DNA of 64,000 bases from Aurelia coerulea. Taxonomy: Eukaryota; Cnidaria; Scyphozoa; Semaeostomeae; Ulmaridae. Below the pieces are notes generated by a model. It was not told the DNA's origin. It saw only the letters and a list, made by a program, of their open reading frames with translations, and made no database searches. Shown in pieces: positions 12,939 through 45,600 of the stretch. The position numbers and the translations under genes are program-made. The stretch lies in the NCBI GenBank assembly GCA_039566865.1, contig CM076945.1, positions 3,089,501 to 3,153,500 of the forward strand, in the 5' to 3' direction. Each line of letters starts with the position of its first letter. The first letter of the stretch is position 1.

Positions 12939-13263
12939 GGCCTTTCAATCTTACACTCTCTGACATTAACATAAGGTTGAAAAGCATAAGCATGCTCAGT
13001 TTTTTTGCATCTGACTCTCATAGTATTTAATTACAATTTTTTACCAATTTATGAGGAATTATAAGAGACTGATGAGGAATTTCCTTAGCATTTTGTATGT
13101 TAAAAGATGCCTTGGTTCAAACTGTGGTGTCCAGCGAGCACTTAATCCCAAATCCAAGCACCCCCTGCTAAAAATATTGTTTACTACCCTCAAGCCGATA
13201 CGTACGACCCCCCGAATGTAAAATCGCATAATTCACGTATCATGTGATAGCAGCTGATTTTAC

Positions 13264-14472
13264 ATGCTGCCCGCTCAAGATACCATCATTCAAGGCCCAC
13301 AACAGTGCAGCAAGATGAGCACACACATGCTACCTAAGAATTTTCAAGATTTTCTAAAAAATTTCATCCTGAGTTGTCTTGACCAACAACCCAGTGACTT
13401 AATAGATTATGCCGCAACTTATTTCAGAGCTGTGAAAGTCAAACGTGATTATTCAATCAAGAAAACAAGTCATGAGGAATTAGCGTCATATGGAGTACAC
13501 CTATCGGTTTGGGGTCTTACTGAGGAGTTGGGCGACGAGGAACTATGGATTCAATCCCCGAAAGAAAGAAGACGTGCTGTCGCCGCACCTTCATTGGATC
13601 CAACAAAAATCGAGAGACAAATCAGCTTAGTTTTTCATCAAAAAAGCAAAGAAAAGATGGATTTCCTACGGGGTGCACTCAAAGAATTGATTTTGTTGAG
13701 AAAATGCGATGATGAACAAATCGAGACAATTGCAGAGGCAATGTTTCCAAGAACAGTAACAAACGGAGAAGTCATAATCAAGCAAGGAGATGATGGCGAC
13801 AATTTTTATTTAATCGAAAAAGGAACGTTTCATGTCCATGTCGAAATTGGGGAATATGAAGTGAACAAGCAGTTAGATGGGAAGGGAAGTTTTGGAGAGC
13901 TGGCACTTCTGCATGATTGCCCGCGTACGGCGACGGTAATAGCAGATTCAGACGGGATCGTATGGTGCCTCGACCAACAAACGTTTCAGATAATTCTAAT
14001 AACGGAGACTGCTAGCAGGAAGTATCAGTTCGAGGAAGTCCTGAAGAGCAACAAAGCATTATCCGTTCTGACATACGCAGAGCGGCTAAAGTTGGTTGAT
14101 GCACTACATATGAGGCAGTTTGAGGGTGGGAGCTGTATCATTAAAGAAGGGGAAGATGGGATGCTGATGTATTTCATCGTTAGTGGGCAAGTAAGAATCA
14201 CAGTCAAGAATGAAGAAACCGGGATTGAGACTGAAGTTGGCAGGATTCTAACAGGTGATCACTTCGGAGAACTCGCATTAGCAATGAACAAACGGAGGCA
14301 AGCGAGTGCACATGCGGAGGGCAAAGTGATGTGTGCTGAATTGGAAGTCGCCGCCTTTGAAAGATTACTTGGTTCCTACAAAGAGATAATAAGGAGAAAC
14401 ATTGATATTTATAATAAGGAACGAAAGAAAGCTGGTTTACACGAAATCAAATCCAACGAGATCATGTTTTGA
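13264..14472 (+). CDS. PRKAR2-like: cAMP-dependent protein kinase type II-like regulatory subunit, intronless
   Basis: It would bind the PKA catalytic subunit and release it on cAMP binding. Order: an RIIa dimerisation/docking domain (residues about 22-58, LPKNFQDFLKNFILSCLDQQ...); a linker with inhibitor site RRRAV (about residues 112-116); cyclic-nucleotide-binding domain A with the phosphate-binding cassette FGELALLHDCPRTATV; and domain B with FGELALAMNKRRQASA. The C-terminal FERLLGSYKEIIRRNI matches RII chains. The 402-residue length is normal. The inhibitor site has Ala where RII chains have the autophosphorylated Ser, so it is a pseudosubstrate as in RI chains. Animal PKA regulatory genes usually have many introns, and this one has none, which suggests a retrocopy or a lineage-specific intron loss. 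Met-18 (13,315) is an equally good start. The frame is open and the key residues are kept, so it may be functional. Confidence 0.92.
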   Translation: MLPAQDTIIQGPQQCSKMSTHMLPKNFQDFLKNFILSCLDQQPSDLIDYAATYFRAVKVKRDYSIKKTSHEELASYGVHLSVWGLTEELGDEELWIQSPKERRRAVAAPSLDPTKIERQISLVFHQKSKEKMDFLRGALKELILLRKCDDEQIETIAEAMFPRTVTNGEVIIKQGDDGDNFYLIEKGTFHVHVEIGEYEVNKQLDGKGSFGELALLHDCPRTATVIADSDGIVWCLDQQTFQIILITETASRKYQFEEVLKSNKALSVLTYAERLKLVDALHMRQFEGGSCIIKEGEDGMLMYFIVSGQVRITVKNEETGIETEVGRILTGDHFGELALAMNKRRQASAHAEGKVMCAELEVAAFERLLGSYKEIIRRNIDIYNKERKKAGLHEIKSNEIMF

Positions 14473-31880: not shown

Positions 31881-32089
31881 TATTAAATTTTCTGCTGTAT
31901 TTACCGAAAAAAAAAGTAAGAAAACATTGTAAATATTAAAAGCATTGTAAAAATCTGTAAAATGTGTCTGTATTTAATCATTCGTAATTTAATTTATTTT
32001 TTACTTTTTTCTTACAAATTTTACTTTTTTAGATAGTAGGCTTGAATTAGCTCTTAGTTATAGCTATTGTATCTATATGTATATATGTC

Positions 32090-34435
32090 TTGTATGTATA
32101 TATATCTGCTAACAAACACGCAAGAAGCTTTCGCTCTACTGCAAAGAAACTTCGAGAGACTTGTAGATTTAAAAATGACCCAAATGGACGAATCTTAAAC
32201 TTAAGTAAACACACTTTTCCTACACACGTATTTAGTTTATTAGATAAAAGTTTGAATTTCTGCCCCCGACCCCCTAGATATAACACTACCGAATTTGATA
32301 AGGACCTTAAGGCCTTCTTTAGACGAATAAGACTAAGAGCACACTTCGGAATTTCTGAATACAATCCTACAATTTTACAACAACTGAAAGAAAGAAATAG
32401 TTCATTTACACCGCAAAACGTAGACACTACCATTCAGACATTTGAGTCTGCAGTCATTGAAGACATTAAAAACCACGATAAACAGGCGCTGCGATCAAAC
32501 AACCTTACGAAAGGTGAAATTAATGCGCTAAGGAATCTATCGGAAAGAGAGGACATCGTAATAACGCGAGCCGACAAAGGAGGGGCAACCGTTATCTGGG
32601 GTATTGAAGAATACCTCACGGAAGCCAACAACCAACTAAATAATACAGCATTCTATAAAAAATTGGCATTTGACCCATTTCATGGGTACATAAGAATAAT
32701 AAACAACTCGTTAGATGAAATGTACACTCAAGATAAAATTGATGCAGAAGCATTGGAGATTTTAAAGGTTCCTAAAGAAGTTAAACCGGCTAGATTCTAT
32801 CTACTACCGAAAATTCATAAAAAGAACAATCCAGGCCGCCCAGTTGTGGCGTCGACAAACTGCCACACAACCAAAATATCTAAATACGTCGATCATTATA
32901 TCCAACCCCTTGCACAAAAAGTGCGATCATACATCCGCGACACTACAGATTTGTTAAACAAAATAAAAACTATTGGTAAAATACCCATGAATGCATTGCT
33001 CGTAACCTTAGATGTAAGATCCCTCTACACAAACATACGCCACGAGGATGGCCTACTAGCCCTTAAAAATGCTTTAAACAAGAGAGCCAATAAAGAACCA
33101 GCAACTGATGCTTTATTAACCATGATGAGACATGTCCTCACGCTCAATTGCTTCACATTCAACGGAAATAGCTACCTACAGACAAGAGGGTGTGCCATGG
33201 GCACCGTTGCAGCACCCTCTTACGCTGTTATATACATGGGTGAATTTGAAGAAAAACACATCTACCCCACAATAGGTAAAGACTGCCTATACTATGGCAG
33301 GTACATAGACGACATCCTTTTAATCTACAAAGGCAGCGAAAGAGAATTCAAGACGTTCGCTGAGCAACTCAACACAAAACACCCATCAATAAAGTTCGAC
33401 TATGAAATTTCAAAAACATCAATCCCTTTCCTAGACACCTGTATCTATATAGACGACAACAGACAACTACAAACAACTCTATTCACCAAACCAACTGACA
33501 CACACAACTACCTACACTATAAATCAGCCCACCCCAGACATCTTAAGAACAGTTTACCCTATTCACAAGCTCTTAGACTTAGAAGGATATGCACAAAAGA
33601 TGACCAACTAGGTAGCAACTGCAAAAAAATGGAAGAAAATTTTCTCCGACGAGGATATCATAAAGAGAATCTCCAAGAACAAATCGGTAAAGCCATCATA
33701 ACCCCAAGAGACACGACATTAAGGAAAGTTTCAAAGAAGCGATCCACAAGAATCCCCCTAGTCACTACCTTTAATTCTACACTGCCCCAAATTGGTAAAA
33801 TCTTGAAAGAAAGATGGGATATTTTAAACATAAAGCCCAAACTCAAGAAACTCTACTCGGAACCTCCGATAATTGCATTTCGTCGATGCAAGAACCTGAG
33901 AGAAATAATTGGCAGCAACACTATCATCAATAACAAAGTTAAAAGAAAAAAAGCCAACAAAAGAACAATTAAATACTGCTCACCATGTAATACCAAAAGA
34001 AGCCTATGCTGCAACCATGTCATTAAAACTAATTCATTTACTAGCGTAAATACCCACAAAACCTATAAAATCTTTCACGAATCTAACTGCAAAAGCATGA
34101 ACGTAATATATCTCCTTGAATGCACCCGCTGTAAGAAACAATATGTCGGCAAATCAGAATGGCCTTTCAACTACAGACTTAATAATTACCGTTCTCGTGT
34201 AAAATCAGCGCAATACGACAAGCTCCTTCCGGTAGAAAAACATTTCAAAGAGCAAAATCACGTCTTCGAAAGAGACGCAAGATTCATAATAATCGAGAAG
34301 ATCGAAAAAGAAAACGTCCAAAATATGACACATTTATTAGAAACACACGAAGACAGCTGGATTAAACGACTGCAGACTCTTTCCCCTAAAGGACTGAACA
34401 ATAAACTTAACCACCCCGACAACTATAAATCATAA
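32090..34435 (+). CDS. Penelope-like element: reverse transcriptase plus GIY-YIG endonuclease
   Basis: A single open frame of about 781 codons. The RT motifs appear in order: RADKGGATVIW, LLPKIHKKNNPGRPVVAS, LVTLDVRSLYTNI (motif A Asp), RGCAMGTVAAPSYA (motif B), YIDDI near residue 405 (catalytic Asp pair) and FLDTCIYID. The thumb LHYKSAHPRHLKNSLPY is followed by LRRIC. A basic linker with CSPCN...CCNH cysteines leads to a GIY-YIG domain from about residue 671 (VIYLLEC...QYVGKSE...RLNNYRS). This order is the hallmark of endonuclease-bearing Penelope-like elements. There is no in-frame ATG in the first 200 codons, so the 5' end is truncated or initiation is unusual. No stop interrupts 2.3 kb, so the insertion is young. 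It sits just downstream of a LINE fragment. Confidence 0.93.
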   Translation: MYVYISANKHARSFRSTAKKLRETCRFKNDPNGRILNLSKHTFPTHVFSLLDKSLNFCPRPPRYNTTEFDKDLKAFFRRIRLRAHFGISEYNPTILQQLKERNSSFTPQNVDTTIQTFESAVIEDIKNHDKQALRSNNLTKGEINALRNLSEREDIVITRADKGGATVIWGIEEYLTEANNQLNNTAFYKKLAFDPFHGYIRIINNSLDEMYTQDKIDAEALEILKVPKEVKPARFYLLPKIHKKNNPGRPVVASTNCHTTKISKYVDHYIQPLAQKVRSYIRDTTDLLNKIKTIGKIPMNALLVTLDVRSLYTNIRHEDGLLALKNALNKRANKEPATDALLTMMRHVLTLNCFTFNGNSYLQTRGCAMGTVAAPSYAVIYMGEFEEKHIYPTIGKDCLYYGRYIDDILLIYKGSEREFKTFAEQLNTKHPSIKFDYEISKTSIPFLDTCIYIDDNRQLQTTLFTKPTDTHNYLHYKSAHPRHLKNSLPYSQALRLRRICTKDDQLGSNCKKMEENFLRRGYHKENLQEQIGKAIITPRDTTLRKVSKKRSTRIPLVTTFNSTLPQIGKILKERWDILNIKPKLKKLYSEPPIIAFRRCKNLREIIGSNTIINNKVKRKKANKRTIKYCSPCNTKRSLCCNHVIKTNSFTSVNTHKTYKIFHESNCKSMNVIYLLECTRCKKQYVGKSEWPFNYRLNNYRSRVKSAQYDKLLPVEKHFKEQNHVFERDARFIIIEKIEKENVQNMTHLLETHEDSWIKRLQTLSPKGLNNKLNHPDNYKS

Positions 34436-39600: not shown

Positions 39601-42600
39601 CGCTCATCGCTCGTCGAAGCCCTAGCACGGGTATCAGTACCCTTCAAAGATCCTTTACTATTGGTACAGCAACTTGAAGGTCGTAGTTTACCATCTGCAC
39701 TAAATCCTGCTATCATGTCTTTGCCCTTTGCATCACTATACAGTGCTGAGTTTACATGATTATGATTAGGTAATTCTGCACCGTTCGTATAGCTACCTTC
39801 AGGCAGTTCTCTCCTGCTTGCAATGTTATTCATTGGTAACTTTTGACCACTCGTTGTGAATTTACCTGAATGCACGTAATTACCAGCTGATCTATTACTG
39901 CTAGCGAATTCTCTTTCATTCCCGGTAGACCGTTGACCATTTTTGCAGCTCCTCTTCAGAATTAATCTGCTATTAGGGCAGTTAGTGTCAAGTATTTCTC
40001 TATCATTTCGTGCATTGTTGGCAGAGCTACCCTTCGAGACTTCTTTTCTAAAACGTGGCAAGTCCTGTTCTGCTATCAAGTTGTGTACAGTATTCACTGT
40101 TGACAGCTTGTGACGGTTATCGCAATCATGCTTGGGTAATTCATCAATGTCAACGAATATATCATCTTGGAGGTCATCGTCCCCATCAAACGGCACTTCA
40201 TTACAAATAGCTCCATCCTCATATCTAACGGTGTTTCCCTTAACATCTGTTGCGTTGTCCAACTTGACTCTGTTGTCCATAACATTTACAGCCTCCTCAT
40301 TCAATTCACAGGCAGTAATCACAGGAAGAGGTTTACCATTGCCTGTAACATTCAAATCTTCAAATAGAAAAGGATTGTCGTCATCACCCAATAGTAACTC
40401 ATCGGCATCGAGAGTCTGATCCTGATTATTAGTTTGTTCATTAGGTGCAATTTTATCATTGGTATCAGGTCTGTATGATTCATGACCTAGGGGCAAAAGG
40501 TGATTAAAATTGGCTGGAAAATAGTGCTCGAGTGGTAACTTATAATAGGCAGATGTAAGGGGCGTGCCATTTTGACTTCTGAAATCACACCCTCTAGATT
40601 TCCCGAAAACCATACCCCAGAATTTACAGGCCATTAGAAATAAATACCATAAAAATAGTAAGAAAAATCATTTTAACCAAGTATATAAAATTAGATCAAA
40701 TTTGATACCCTAAAGAGTTATTGCGTACAATGATACTCCAAAATTTAAGGTCGTACCAAAAATGATATTTCAAAATCTATGGCTATTATGATCTTTACGA
40801 ACAATTCTCAAGAAAGAGAAAGCAAAAAATTAATCTCGTAGCTTTCATGTATATGAATTCTGAAGATTCATGTTCAGGCATACAATACAATTGATATAGG
40901 AAAAGATCTATCAAAATTTGGCGCTTCTTCCTTTCCCCACGGCTGGAGTGTTCTCCCGTGGACCTTGCGCAACAAGGTACGCAAATACGTAGACAAAGCG
41001 TATAGTACGTAGACAAAGCGTATTGTTACGTACGTAATACGTCACATCCAGCAGCGTACAGAGCGTACGTACGTACGTACGTAGGGGCGTGCGCGTAATA
41101 ATACGTGCGCGTGGTGGGGCGGGGAGCGGGTGTGTGTAAAAGGGCGGAGGCGCCTCCGCAGCCGCCTCCGCCCTTGTATAGCATATTCAAAAAGATAATA
41201 CGCATATATTTTCCACTTTTAACTCATCCATTATTAATATACATCATGTTTACCATATTAAGAGTTTCAAATGTTCCACCATTTACGTCATATACTCTAC
41301 AATAATTAGTTTCCTCATCTGTCGTGTCAACATCTTTCTCATCGACATCGCGTTGTTCTTTCTCTGTTTCTTTAGGTATGTATACGCATGAATCCATAAT
41401 GTTCTCAACTTTTCTCTTCACTCCGTTAATACCCATAGTGCGTCGTCCATAAGTGCGTCGTCCACACCATTCCATATATACATTAATAGTGCCACTCTCT
41501 GGATCTATGTCGAAGTTCATTGTTATATCATTGATATCTCTGAAGTTCCATTTATCACTAAAGTCAAAATATATCATATCATCCATGTTGCTCATCGTAA
41601 TTGTGTGTTGAAAATGAGTTGTGAGTCCTTATTATATGATGCTGAGTTTCCGACACATCGTTAGAAGTATCTGTTACTTACACTTGAATTGTTTTGGCGT
41701 AAATGACCCTTGTCGTGGTCTTAATGTTTTTAGGCGCTCTAATCGAATGTCTCTGCGAATTGCTGAATCTTTTTTTCTATAAAAATAACCATCTCTAGAC
41801 ATATACATCCATTGATGATGTTTTTTTATTTTTTTCCGGCATGCACCAAATTAATTCACCTAGTGTTGCTGGATAGTAGTCCTCTCGTGTCATTTTTTTC
41901 CATTGACCCCATTCATCGTCAGATAAGTGTTCTTCGCAGTTTTGTTTCTTGTCTGAAGCGATGATGTTCGGATGTATGGCTATTTTCGGTGTGATGATTT
42001 CATATGGATATGCTGAAGCGCGGGATATCTCCCTAGCTTTTGATACTGCTGTGAAATGAGCCATCGTAATTGTGTGTTGAAAATGAGTTTTGCGTCGTTA
42101 TTATGTGATGCTAAGTTGCCGACACATCGTTGGAAGTATCTGTTAGTAGGTACTGTAATAACAGTTCGATTATATTCATCAGTATGACATGCAGCCACTT
42201 CCTTTGCACAACTTGCTTCTACAAACTCACTCATAACGACTTAAACGGCCAACTTTTGCGAACGATCCGATGTCCAGTATGTCAAGAACGAGACTTTCCT
42301 GCAGAGAATGATACAAACGCCACTATGCACAAATTCACACTTTTAAAAGCACTTAATGAGAGTGAACACATCCGTCAACAAGCAAAATCCGACATTATGG
42401 AAACAAAAATAATGAAAGATAAAGATGCGGAAATTACCTCACTTAAAATGGAGAACGTTAAACTAATTGCAAAGATTCTAAACATGGAAAAAATCAATTC
42501 AAACCTCACATCACTTGCCGCTCAAGCCAAAGAAATTGAACAGTTGACAATGTCAAAAAATGCAGCTATGGAATTACTGGAGAAGAATCGTAGACAGCTG

Positions 42601-45600
42601 GACTCATCACATAACACTTTATGTTTCGCCCTCGGTACAATGCAAGCTGATATAATGCAGAAGCTAAATGTCATTGCCACTGAGGCCATTGGATTGCCAG
42701 AACGTGTAAGAACAGACCTGGAAAACAAACTAACATATGATTTCAGCAAAACGCTGAAAAAACTTGGTTGTATTGAGCACGATAATGCAGTGAAAACATT
42801 AGCTAGTATTCATGGAGCAGAACATATATTGAATAAATCATGCGTCAGAGAAGCCCTCCTTGCAGACGTCTCCTCACACGCTCACGATCATGAGGAATGT
42901 CAAAAGGATTTGTTTAGAATGACAAAATTAATTGCCGATGTAAATAATGGAATCACCACTCTTACCGGTTTACATGCACTATCCGAAAAAGTATTAAAAA
43001 AAGAGCACATGATTCAATTTCAATTGCCTGCCGCCGCAGAGCAATTACTTTCACACGACATCAACTACAACACCTTTATTTCAAACACCCTCCGAAGCAC
43101 AGAGAAAAAAATTCATGCCTTCGCTAATGCACTTGGCATCACAGCACGTGAAGAGATGATCAAAAAACGACCTCCTCCACCTCAAGAATGCGACACTGAT
43201 GATGACAACACAGCTCCTCCGCCTGCAAAAAAGTCGTTTGCCCCCGTAAACACCTTCACTCAAACATCATCATCAGAGCCTACCTATCAACTCCTCAAAG
43301 CACCAAAGAAAATCGTCACACCTCCTCCTTCAAAATATGACGTATGCGCAAAGATAGATATGGCAACACAAACAGACCCACCACTCTACACCACACCAAT
43401 CACACATGCCGTTAATTTCATGAATGACAAGCGAAAGATGCTGCAAGACGCAGAGAATCAAGTATTAGAAGTATTACAGCAGATGAAAGAAGCAGCCCTT
43501 CTCAATTCAACTCAAGCATTTCACTGCTGGGTATGGAATGAAATAAACCCCAAGGATGAGACACCGTTGAAATCAATTAAATGCATGTTGGGACCTCACG
43601 TGTCAGGAGTAGATGCACCGCAACGATGCATGCTCGAGCACCGATGTATGGCTTCTTTAGCACACGGGGGTCTGTGCTTAGCTCGCAATCACACTTACGT
43701 GCAACACATCCTATTCTACGATATGCCCCTCGATAAAGCAACCATCCTATGGAAACACGACGTCATCACCAGAGAGCAATTCAAGTTGGTGAAGACTTTG
43801 GACTAGGAACGACGAGATAACTTACATGCTATGTCAAAATCAGACGTTATCGCAACTATTGAACGCTATGGTCTTATAGACAGTTATCAATTACCTGTAA
43901 TAGAGAACACTGACATTATTGATTTTGATTATTTTAAATCTAAAAAATAAGTGTAAAATATTTTGATTGCAATCACGGACTGAGCATCTTATCTACCGAT
44001 TCATATAATGTGCCTATTTCTCTTGTATGAACCTCTCACACGTTTTGGTAAGCGCAGCGCGAAATACATTATTAACAGCATTTTAAATATCATAGAGGAT
44101 GCTACGATATATATAATGAAGAGACACCCTGAAAAATGATAACTTACAAAGATATGATTCTGCAGACAGGACGCACACCAGCCCATCAATATGGATGGAC
44201 ACGGGGGCATATATACGGTGGATAATAGTGTAATGGTGACGTAAAGATTGCGTCTAGCGCATGTGCAGTGTATGACTTAGGGCGGAGGCGGCTGCGGAGG
44301 CGCCTCCGCCCTTTTCCTCACACCCGCTCCCCGCCCCACCACGCGCACGTATTATTACGCGCACGCCCCTACGTACGTACGTACGTACGCTCTGTACGCT
44401 GCCGGATGTGACGTATTCCTTGCAAGTAACAAACATTTCTTACAATGAAAAGAGCATATCAAACAACGTTTTTTTAACTTCAAAATGCGATCCAAAGAAT
44501 GCACATAACGTTTAAAGAAATAATCTTTCAAAAGAGAGGACTGCGCTGGGCGTCGTTCCTCGGTAAAATTATCATGAGAAAAAAAGAAACAAACATACCA
44601 ACTTCGTTGATATTTTCGACAAATTTAGAGAGCTCCTTGTGAAATTCCATGCCATTCCAAATTCCGGCTCTACCTCTCTTTCTTAACAGTCTGTGAAAGG
44701 GCGAATGACATAAAATACGGGTAAGTTTGTCATGCCCAGATTTAATGAAATGGTTACCTGAAATCACAGTCGTAGAAAGGCAAGAGGTATGGTCAGAAAA
44801 GGATTTTGAAATCAGCAAAATTTGGTGCTGCAACTAAAGTCTGTCTAAAGTTAGATTTCACATGTAAATATCCGCGAATAAGAACCATTACAAGAGCTTT
44901 GCATCAGTAGTTTTGAGATGGTGCGAAAGATCAAAATATCTTTAGTGGCAATACCAAATAATACCCACACAAGTGAAAGATTTGACTAATAAGCTGCAGA
45001 TGGAGATTCTTTCCAATTCTCGAAAAGTGCCGGAACATTTTATTTGGTGTATTTTGTCCACAAGCTTTCCATCCGAAACGTTTGGATGTTAAAGGGGCTC
45101 CATTGCCAAACAATAAACACACGTAAACTCGCACGTGTCACCAATTATCCATTGTTTGCTGCAGTTTGTTTGGTGGCTTCACTCCAGCCACCAAAAAGTG
45201 ACCGTTAAAAATCCACTTATATCCGAGCAATCGTAGAAGATATGAATGTTTGGTTTGTTCCTTAGTGAAGTACAATGATTTATGTTCAAACAAAGATAAG
45301 GCTCAAATCCTTACTGGTTGCCAGAGCATGCGGAAATCATCCAATTTCATGCTTGTCAGCCAATGAGATCACCGCTTTCTAGCCCCTGGAGCAGGGCTGG
45401 AAAAAGTGCGCGACCACGCGACCGTCGGTCGGAGGCATGTTTTAAAATCTGACAAAACAATGGAGGCACTTTTTAAACTTTCTGAAACGTCTTTTGAAAA
45501 TATTTTCCACTCTTAATTGTTCAATAGAATTTATTATATGAGATTTTTGTGAAAGAAAAAGAGCCTCATATTACTGCAACGAAAGTTAGGTAGACAATCG

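What the first reader, a model, noticed from the sequence alone, without database searches (positions are those of the whole stretch)
41036..44417. Undescribed-looking 3.4-kb virus-like element with hairpin TIRs inside an ETAA1 intron
Two 138-bp inverted repeats differ at 3 positions and enclose compact divergent ORFs, none of which I can place: a half-RING coiled-coil protein (540 aa), two small ORFs behind a shared leader, and small ORFs at the right. There is no recognisable transposase, integrase or replicase. Base composition and gene style differ from the surroundings. It could be an integrated small DNA virus, a satellite of one, or a new transposon class that relies on factors in trans.
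Basis: partly seen in the sequence, partly recalled or inferred. Interest (0 to 1): 0.92.

Follow-up and report, generated by a model that had tools for sequence, protein, structure and literature searches.

The report
Small hairpin-ended relative of virus-like transposons
A single 3.4-kb piece of DNA with matching hairpin-rich ends sits in an animal genome and carries a diverged copy of a gene otherwise found there in large virus-like elements, so it looks like a small dependent relative or remnant of such a virus rather than a wholly new class.

Summary
The structure is real: 139-nt inverted repeats (3 mismatches) at 41036-41174 and 44279-44417 enclose 3.1 kb with one long open frame, 42115-43803, far beyond chance. 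In the 574-Mb genome the repeat was found only here.

It can be placed: the genome gives 12 other matches at E<=1e-3, in 11 loci. Several lie in large elements that end 5'-AGTAGTATA and carry a RING-coiled-coil version of the gene. The one I followed also has a B-family polymerase by motifs (perhaps protein-primed) and an A32-like ATPase. The ten versions aligned share a C-terminal Cys/His domain with 11 invariant residues.

The window copy looks decayed or altered. It lacks the first Cys pair of the RING, and a stop separates it from a tail that relatives keep fused.

Most likely this is a solitary, non-autonomous, satellite-like or defective relative of Polinton-like elements with its own hairpin ends, integrated without a recognisable target duplication. 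How it replicated and integrated is inferred. A gene-capturing transposon, a segment of an unsampled virus, or a local inverted duplication are not excluded.

The parts
41036..41174 (+). left terminal inverted repeat: ACGT repeats, imperfect hairpin with TATTATTAC on the minus strand, GC boxes, inner GC-rich palindrome
   Evidence: found only here in own genome
44279..44417 (-). right terminal inverted repeat, 3 mismatches to the left arm
41137..41178 (.). GC-rich palindrome at the inner edge of the left arm
   Evidence: I2
44279..44312 (.). GC-rich palindrome at the inner edge of the right arm
   Evidence: I9
41227..41595 (-). 123-aa ORF; one match in the genome (itself); only a weak PHROG match (phrog_17453, unknown function, E 6e-4)
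41593..41676 (-). 84-nt repeat copy 1: leader/promoter-like stretch ending in the ATG of the 123-aa ORF; TATAAT box at 41636
41798..42064 (-). 89-aa ORF; no relative in the loci held (whole-genome search not answered)
   Evidence: unanswered
42062..42145 (-). 84-nt repeat copy 2 (92% to copy 1), ending in the ATG of the 89-aa ORF and close to the start of the long frame
42184..43806 (+). 540-aa ORF: half RING (C-x-H-x2-C-x2-C...C-x2-C without the first C-x2-C), coiled coil, C-terminal Cys/His domain; related to RING-coiled-coil genes of large Polinton-like elements
43510..43803 (+). C-terminal Cys/His domain with invariant C, N, C, C, H, C, G, C, H, H, L
   Evidence: 10 aligned rows
43831..43947 (+). 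39-codon stretch in the same frame, behind the stop at 43804-43806, resembling the tail fused to the gene in L024/L025
   Evidence: E 0.003 and 0.012 in a search of 20 loci
40986..41035 (.). ACGT-rich 20-bp tandem repeats just outside the left arm; possibly more of the element's end, absent at the right
   Evidence: weak

Best explanation
A solitary integrated copy of a small linear DNA element that depended on others: a non-autonomous (satellite-like or deletion-derived) relative of the Polinton-like virus elements of the same genome. Shown: the TIRs, the gene family link, no replicase, integrase or capsid gene recognised by profile search, one copy found, no shared flank of 4 or 6 bp at the TIR edge. 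Inferred: the hairpin-rich TIRs served as replication ends for a polymerase supplied in trans (the B-family polymerase of the large elements); the RING-coiled-coil product acted in the host cell, for example as a ubiquitin ligase or regulator; the DNA entered the intron by illegitimate end joining. The present copy is probably no longer fully coding.
For: The long frame has 12 other matches at E<=1e-3 in the own genome, in 11 loci, with an alignable C-terminal Cys/His domain in 10 of 10 rows chosen. In the large element followed, the genes beside it include a frame with C2H2 fingers and B-family polymerase motifs (motif A in 5, B in 7, C in 7 of 9 aligned sequences, query included) and an A32-like ATPase (E 4e-4, below the Pfam cut-off). 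AGTAGTATA occurs in 11 of 20 fetched loci; one short element, L031 2903-9458, has identical 121-nt TIRs and ATTGCC on both sides, so short derivatives exist. Window: no AGTAGTATA, no duplication seen, TIR found only here.
Against: The window TIR is not the TIR of the large elements; alignment scores to their ends are borderline at best. The 123-aa ORF is unique, and the 89-aa ORF has no relative in the loci held. No second copy with the same TIR proves mobility. The closest relatives (L024-L026) show no inverted repeat of 40 nt or more, only short inverted matches. No profile or structure confirms the polymerase. No test of replication in trans was possible.
Confidence: 0.5

Rival explanations
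1. A genome segment, or a small complete genome, of an unsampled linear DNA virus (bidnavirus- or parvovirus-like, multipartite), integrated by chance; the RING gene was exchanged with Polinton-like viruses.
For: Compact divergent genes, duplicated leader, hairpin-rich TIR, one copy found, no target duplication seen. GTATTATTAC occurs twice in the window, only in the arms; TATTATTAC I recall as a nanovirus-type origin nonamer.
Against: No Rep/NS1 or capsid match in Pfam, PHROGs, PDB sequences, IMG/VR or the protein collection for the ORFs given; a PDB hit of the 123-aa ORF to a VP2 chain has E 0.24.
Confidence: 0.2
2. A TIR transposon moved by a transposase in trans that captured a Polinton RING gene. 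A 2-bp TA duplication is possible if the TIR starts at CGTCAC.
For: TA on both sides at offset 4, and AT at offset 3.
Against: Only one copy found; two bases agree by chance easily; capture of one gene would not by itself explain two further ORFs behind duplicated leaders.
Confidence: 0.15
3. A decayed internal piece of a large Polinton-like element whose flanking repeat arose by local inverted duplication.
For: Broken-looking RING gene and detached tail; TIR found only at this locus; relatives L024-L026 look like fragments and show no long inverted repeats.
Against: The arms enclose the gene set and stop at palindromes; no other gene of the large elements (polymerase, ATPase, 496-aa gene) was recognised in the 3.1 kb.
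Confidence: 0.15

Closest known systems
Polinton/Maverick and adintovirus-like elements (eukaryotic preplasmiviricots)
   Same: Shares its main gene with elements in the same genome that have a polymerase with B-family motifs, an A32-like ATPase and AG...CT ends
   Different: No polymerase, ATPase or integrase recognised; TIR unlike theirs; no 6-bp duplication
Short Polinton-like element L031 2903-9458 in the same genome
   Same: Short TIR element with remnants of the RING gene
   Different: L031 keeps the AGTAGTATA end and ATTGCC on both sides
Bidnaviridae / Parvoviridae (recalled; passages in PMC11071308)
   Same: Small linear DNA with hairpin or inverted terminal repeats, divergent genes
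   Different: No polymerase, NS1 or capsid gene found here
Transpovirons and virophage-type satellites (recalled; a passage of PMC11071308 and abstracts in listings)
   Same: Small DNA dependent on a larger virus
   Different: Described with giant viruses of protists; no gene comparison was made here

Membership tests
Polinton/Maverick | protein-primed B-family DNA polymerase | tested here: not met
   none of the ORFs given matches; present by motifs only in relatives
Polinton/Maverick | retrovirus-type integrase | tested here: not met
   no Pfam match in the five ORFs scanned; not seen in the parts of the large elements scanned either
Polinton/Maverick | 5'-AG...CT-3' TIR ends with 6-bp duplication (recalled) | tested here: not met
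   AGTAGTATA 0 matches in the window; no shared 6-mer at offsets -3 to 5
Polinton/Maverick | capsid proteins and packaging ATPase | tested here: not met
   ATPase only in relative L045
Parvoviridae/Bidnaviridae | NS1 helicase or PolB and capsid protein | tested here: not met
   (sequence profiles only, no fold comparison)
Parvoviridae/Bidnaviridae | hairpin-forming terminal repeats | tested here: met
   left arm folded; hairpins lie inside the arm, not strictly at the end
Cut-and-paste TIR transposon | target-site duplication | tested here: inconclusive
   only TA or AT possible; no empty site available
Cut-and-paste TIR transposon | several copies with the same TIR | tested here: not met
   three matches, namely the two arms and the arm's own palindrome (the tool skips very common words)
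RING-coiled-coil gene family of the large elements | complete RING plus C-terminal Cys/His domain | tested here: inconclusive
   C-terminal domain met; full RING pattern in 7 of 7 large-element ORFs that I picked but not in the window

The most novel reading that the evidence does not exclude
An endogenous DNA satellite of Polinton-like viruses in an animal: a small linear replicon with its own hairpin origin ends that hijacks a helper's protein-primed polymerase and carries only a RING regulator and two small genes.
Probability: 0.22. Interest if true: 0.8.

Novelty: new variant of a known kind. Interest (0 to 1): 0.6.

Why it matters
If it is a satellite of Polinton-like elements, animal Polintons would have parasites of their own, which would support the view that they are live viruses. 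Even if it is only a remnant, it exposes a RING-coiled-coil gene with a conserved C-terminal Cys/His domain shared by diverged virus-like elements in this genome. No function was found for it, and the accompanying polymerase is too divergent for Pfam.

Tried and rejected
Viral collection by protein and by TIR pattern: no relative in 5 scans. Protein collection: none for the window ORF (8000 candidates scored) or its C-terminal part (40 candidates). PDB sequences: weak hits only, taken as chance: E 0.024 and 0.025 for the long frame, 0.24 (VP2) and 1.4 for the 123-aa ORF, none for the C-terminal part. PHROGs: phrog_1210 at E 6e-4 for the coiled coil and phrog_17453, of unknown function, at E 6e-4 for the 123-aa frame; both marginal and not followed. 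Weak Pfam hits of the small ORFs (E 0.02-0.05) taken as chance. Rfam: nothing at gathering score; four weak hits at the palindromes, E 0.03-0.7, taken as chance. A resemblance of the C-terminal domain to the primase large subunit occurred to me and was dropped: Pfam and PDB gave nothing. A missing upstream exon for the RING was looked for; the only donor that seemed to fit lies in the TIR without an ATG before it, so it was dropped (reading by eye). Structure of the 558-residue frame from one sequence: mean pLDDT 39.5, mainly a long helix, not used for a fold search. A 17-nt direct similarity of the outer flanks (6 of 500 shuffles) is too diverged for a target duplication. Profile confirmation of the polymerase failed: 0 of 9 members match a polymerase in Pfam, and the PDB search gave no polymerase; the assignment rests on motifs. 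A second structure job was never accepted. Searches of the own genome with the polymerase family, the polymerase fragment, the 89-aa ORF and the left flank did not complete.

Full report
The thing itself. The inverted repeats are present as described: 139 nt, three mismatches, 41036-41174 and 44279-44417. Each arm runs, from outside in, through ACGT repeats, an imperfect hairpin, GC boxes and a GC-rich palindrome on which the repeat ends. As single-stranded DNA the left arm folds better than all 200 shuffles (z -3.1). GTATTATTAC occurs twice in the 64 kb, once in each arm (0.11 expected); I recall TATTATTAC as a nanovirus-type origin nonamer, and nothing else here supports rolling-circle replication. 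Arm divergence is 3 of 139; without a host clock I give no age.

Genes. On the plus strand a 563-codon open frame (42115-43803; 540 aa from the ATG at 42184) exceeds anything in 300 Markov sequences (longest 209). On the minus strand ORFs of 123 and 89 aa each begin at the end of an 84-nt leader present in two copies 92% alike. A TATAAT box stands 41 nt before the ATG in copy 1 only. Pfam finds the RING without its beginning (zf-RING_5, E 6e-6, 26.5 bits against a cut-off of 27.9, profile positions 10-42 of 43).

Uniqueness. In the genome (574 Mb, 294 contigs, unnamed) the TIR search returned this locus only and the 123-aa ORF matched itself only. The search for the 89-aa ORF did not complete.

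Relatives. The long frame has 31 matches at E<=1, one of them itself; 12 others are at E<=1e-3, two of which are neighbouring pieces of one locus (the tool calls its counts lower bounds). I fetched 20 stretches of 10 kb around them and next to them. By DNA similarity most fall into three groups. L036 and L038-L042 (with L037 as a fragment) carry a gene with an open frame of 787 aa in L040 and 785 aa in L041, shorter or split in the rest. L028, L030 and L033 carry frames of 808, 836 and 811 aa, with cut or internally repeated versions in L029, L032, L034 and L035. L024-L026 are closest to the window. L027 and L031 match too but stand apart; L043 is a neighbouring stretch and is not counted. In seven loci (L028, L030, L033, L034, L036, L040, L042) the end of homology lies within about 6 nt of 5'-AGTAGTATA, and this motif occurs in 11 of the 20 stretches, none of them L024-L026. 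I recall AG...CT ends and 6-bp duplications as Polinton traits. L031 2903-9458 shows both, with ATTGCC on either side; I checked the duplication in this locus only.

What the large elements encode. Following the one at C9 around 12.15 Mb inward from its end: the RING gene, a gene of at least 940 aa that runs on into the next stretch, frames of 755, 438 and 496 aa, then a long frame with C2H2 fingers and B-family polymerase motifs, and a protein with a Pox_A32 match (E 4e-4, 20.3 bits against a cut-off of 22.8). The 496-aa frame is related to the gene next to the closest relative in L024 (29% identity, E 5e-36 for this single comparison). The second half of the polymerase found ten relatives in the protein collection (8000 candidates scored), one of them from EukProt labelled hypothetical. 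I aligned the query with eight of the ten. In these 9 sequences motif A (D.CSLYLSS) is in 5, motif B (K..GNS.FG) in 7 and motif C (TDTDS) in 7, two of the sequences being short. Pfam and PDB do not confirm it. A vOTU-like stretch between fingers and polymerase is my reading by eye and was not reported by Pfam. PMC11071308 (passages only) describes terminal-protein and vOTU domains before the polymerase of Polintons. PMC11071296 (one section read, and passages) uses an OTU-like domain on PolB among the traits that define adintoviruses. No integrase or capsid protein was identified in the parts scanned, and the far end of this element is not held, so the name Polinton-like is provisional.

How the window copy differs. 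The full RING pattern is in 7 of 7 large-element ORFs that I picked and not in the window. A stop at 43804-43806 separates the frame from a 39-codon stretch in the same frame that resembles the tail fused to the gene in L024 and L025 (E 0.003 and 0.012 in a search of the 20 loci). So the window gene is either decayed or shortened. The C-terminal domain is intact by its conserved residues: 11 invariant columns over 10 rows, among them five Cys and three His. Some of these rows are near-duplicates.

Ends. No shared 4-mer or 6-mer is found at offsets -3 to 5 around the TIR edge; two offsets share two bases. Outside the left arm lies an ACGT-rich stretch with 20-bp tandem repeats that the right lacks. 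It has 4 ACGT in 61 bp against 0.13 per 60 bp elsewhere, but at least one other 60-bp stretch of the window also reaches 4. It may be element DNA left at one end only, which would suit ragged end joining. Alignment of this region to the ends of the large elements is borderline: over 20 comparisons the score was reached by 0 of 200 shuffles for L040 and L042 (near-identical to each other) in one orientation and by 1 to 186 in the rest.

Reading. The main gene ties the element to the large elements, while its ends do not. The simplest account is a small dependent element of that virus-like world, integrated once. That its ends were copied by a polymerase in trans, and that it was joined into the intron by repair, are inferences. 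A local inverted duplication around a decayed fragment is the dullest rival and is not excluded, because the TIR was found nowhere else.

Literature. Library searches for Polinton with RING finger and Cnidaria or with RING finger and coiled-coil returned 0 papers; among the titles listed none describes such an element. Most subscription papers are not in that library.

Noticed in passing
L031 2903-9458: 6.56-kb element with 121-nt identical TIRs, AGTAGTATA ends and ATTGCC on both sides, holding remnants of the RING gene and C2H2 part, and an RT-like frame inside (by eye).
   Followed up: partly
L017-L023 and L034 (C1 19.304-19.344 Mb): Array, mostly with a period of about 5.1 kb, joining the 3' part of a RING gene to the N-terminal half of the polymerase gene.
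   Followed up: partly
L029, L032, L035: RING genes with internal tandem repeats of about 1.12 kb that keep the frame open (1755 codons within L032; 2803 at the same locus).
   Followed up: no
L024 1671-2379 minus: Kinase-like frames next to the closest relatives of the window gene (by eye).
   Followed up: no
window 32051-34435 plus: 794-aa open frame that looks like a reverse-transcriptase element, probably Penelope-like (by eye).
   Followed up: no
window 13258-14472 plus: 404-aa frame resembling cyclic-nucleotide-binding domains of a cGMP-dependent kinase (by eye).
   Followed up: no
window 40900-40915 and 44447-44463: Direct similarity of 17 nt in the outer flanks, reached by 6 of 500 shuffles.
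   Followed up: no
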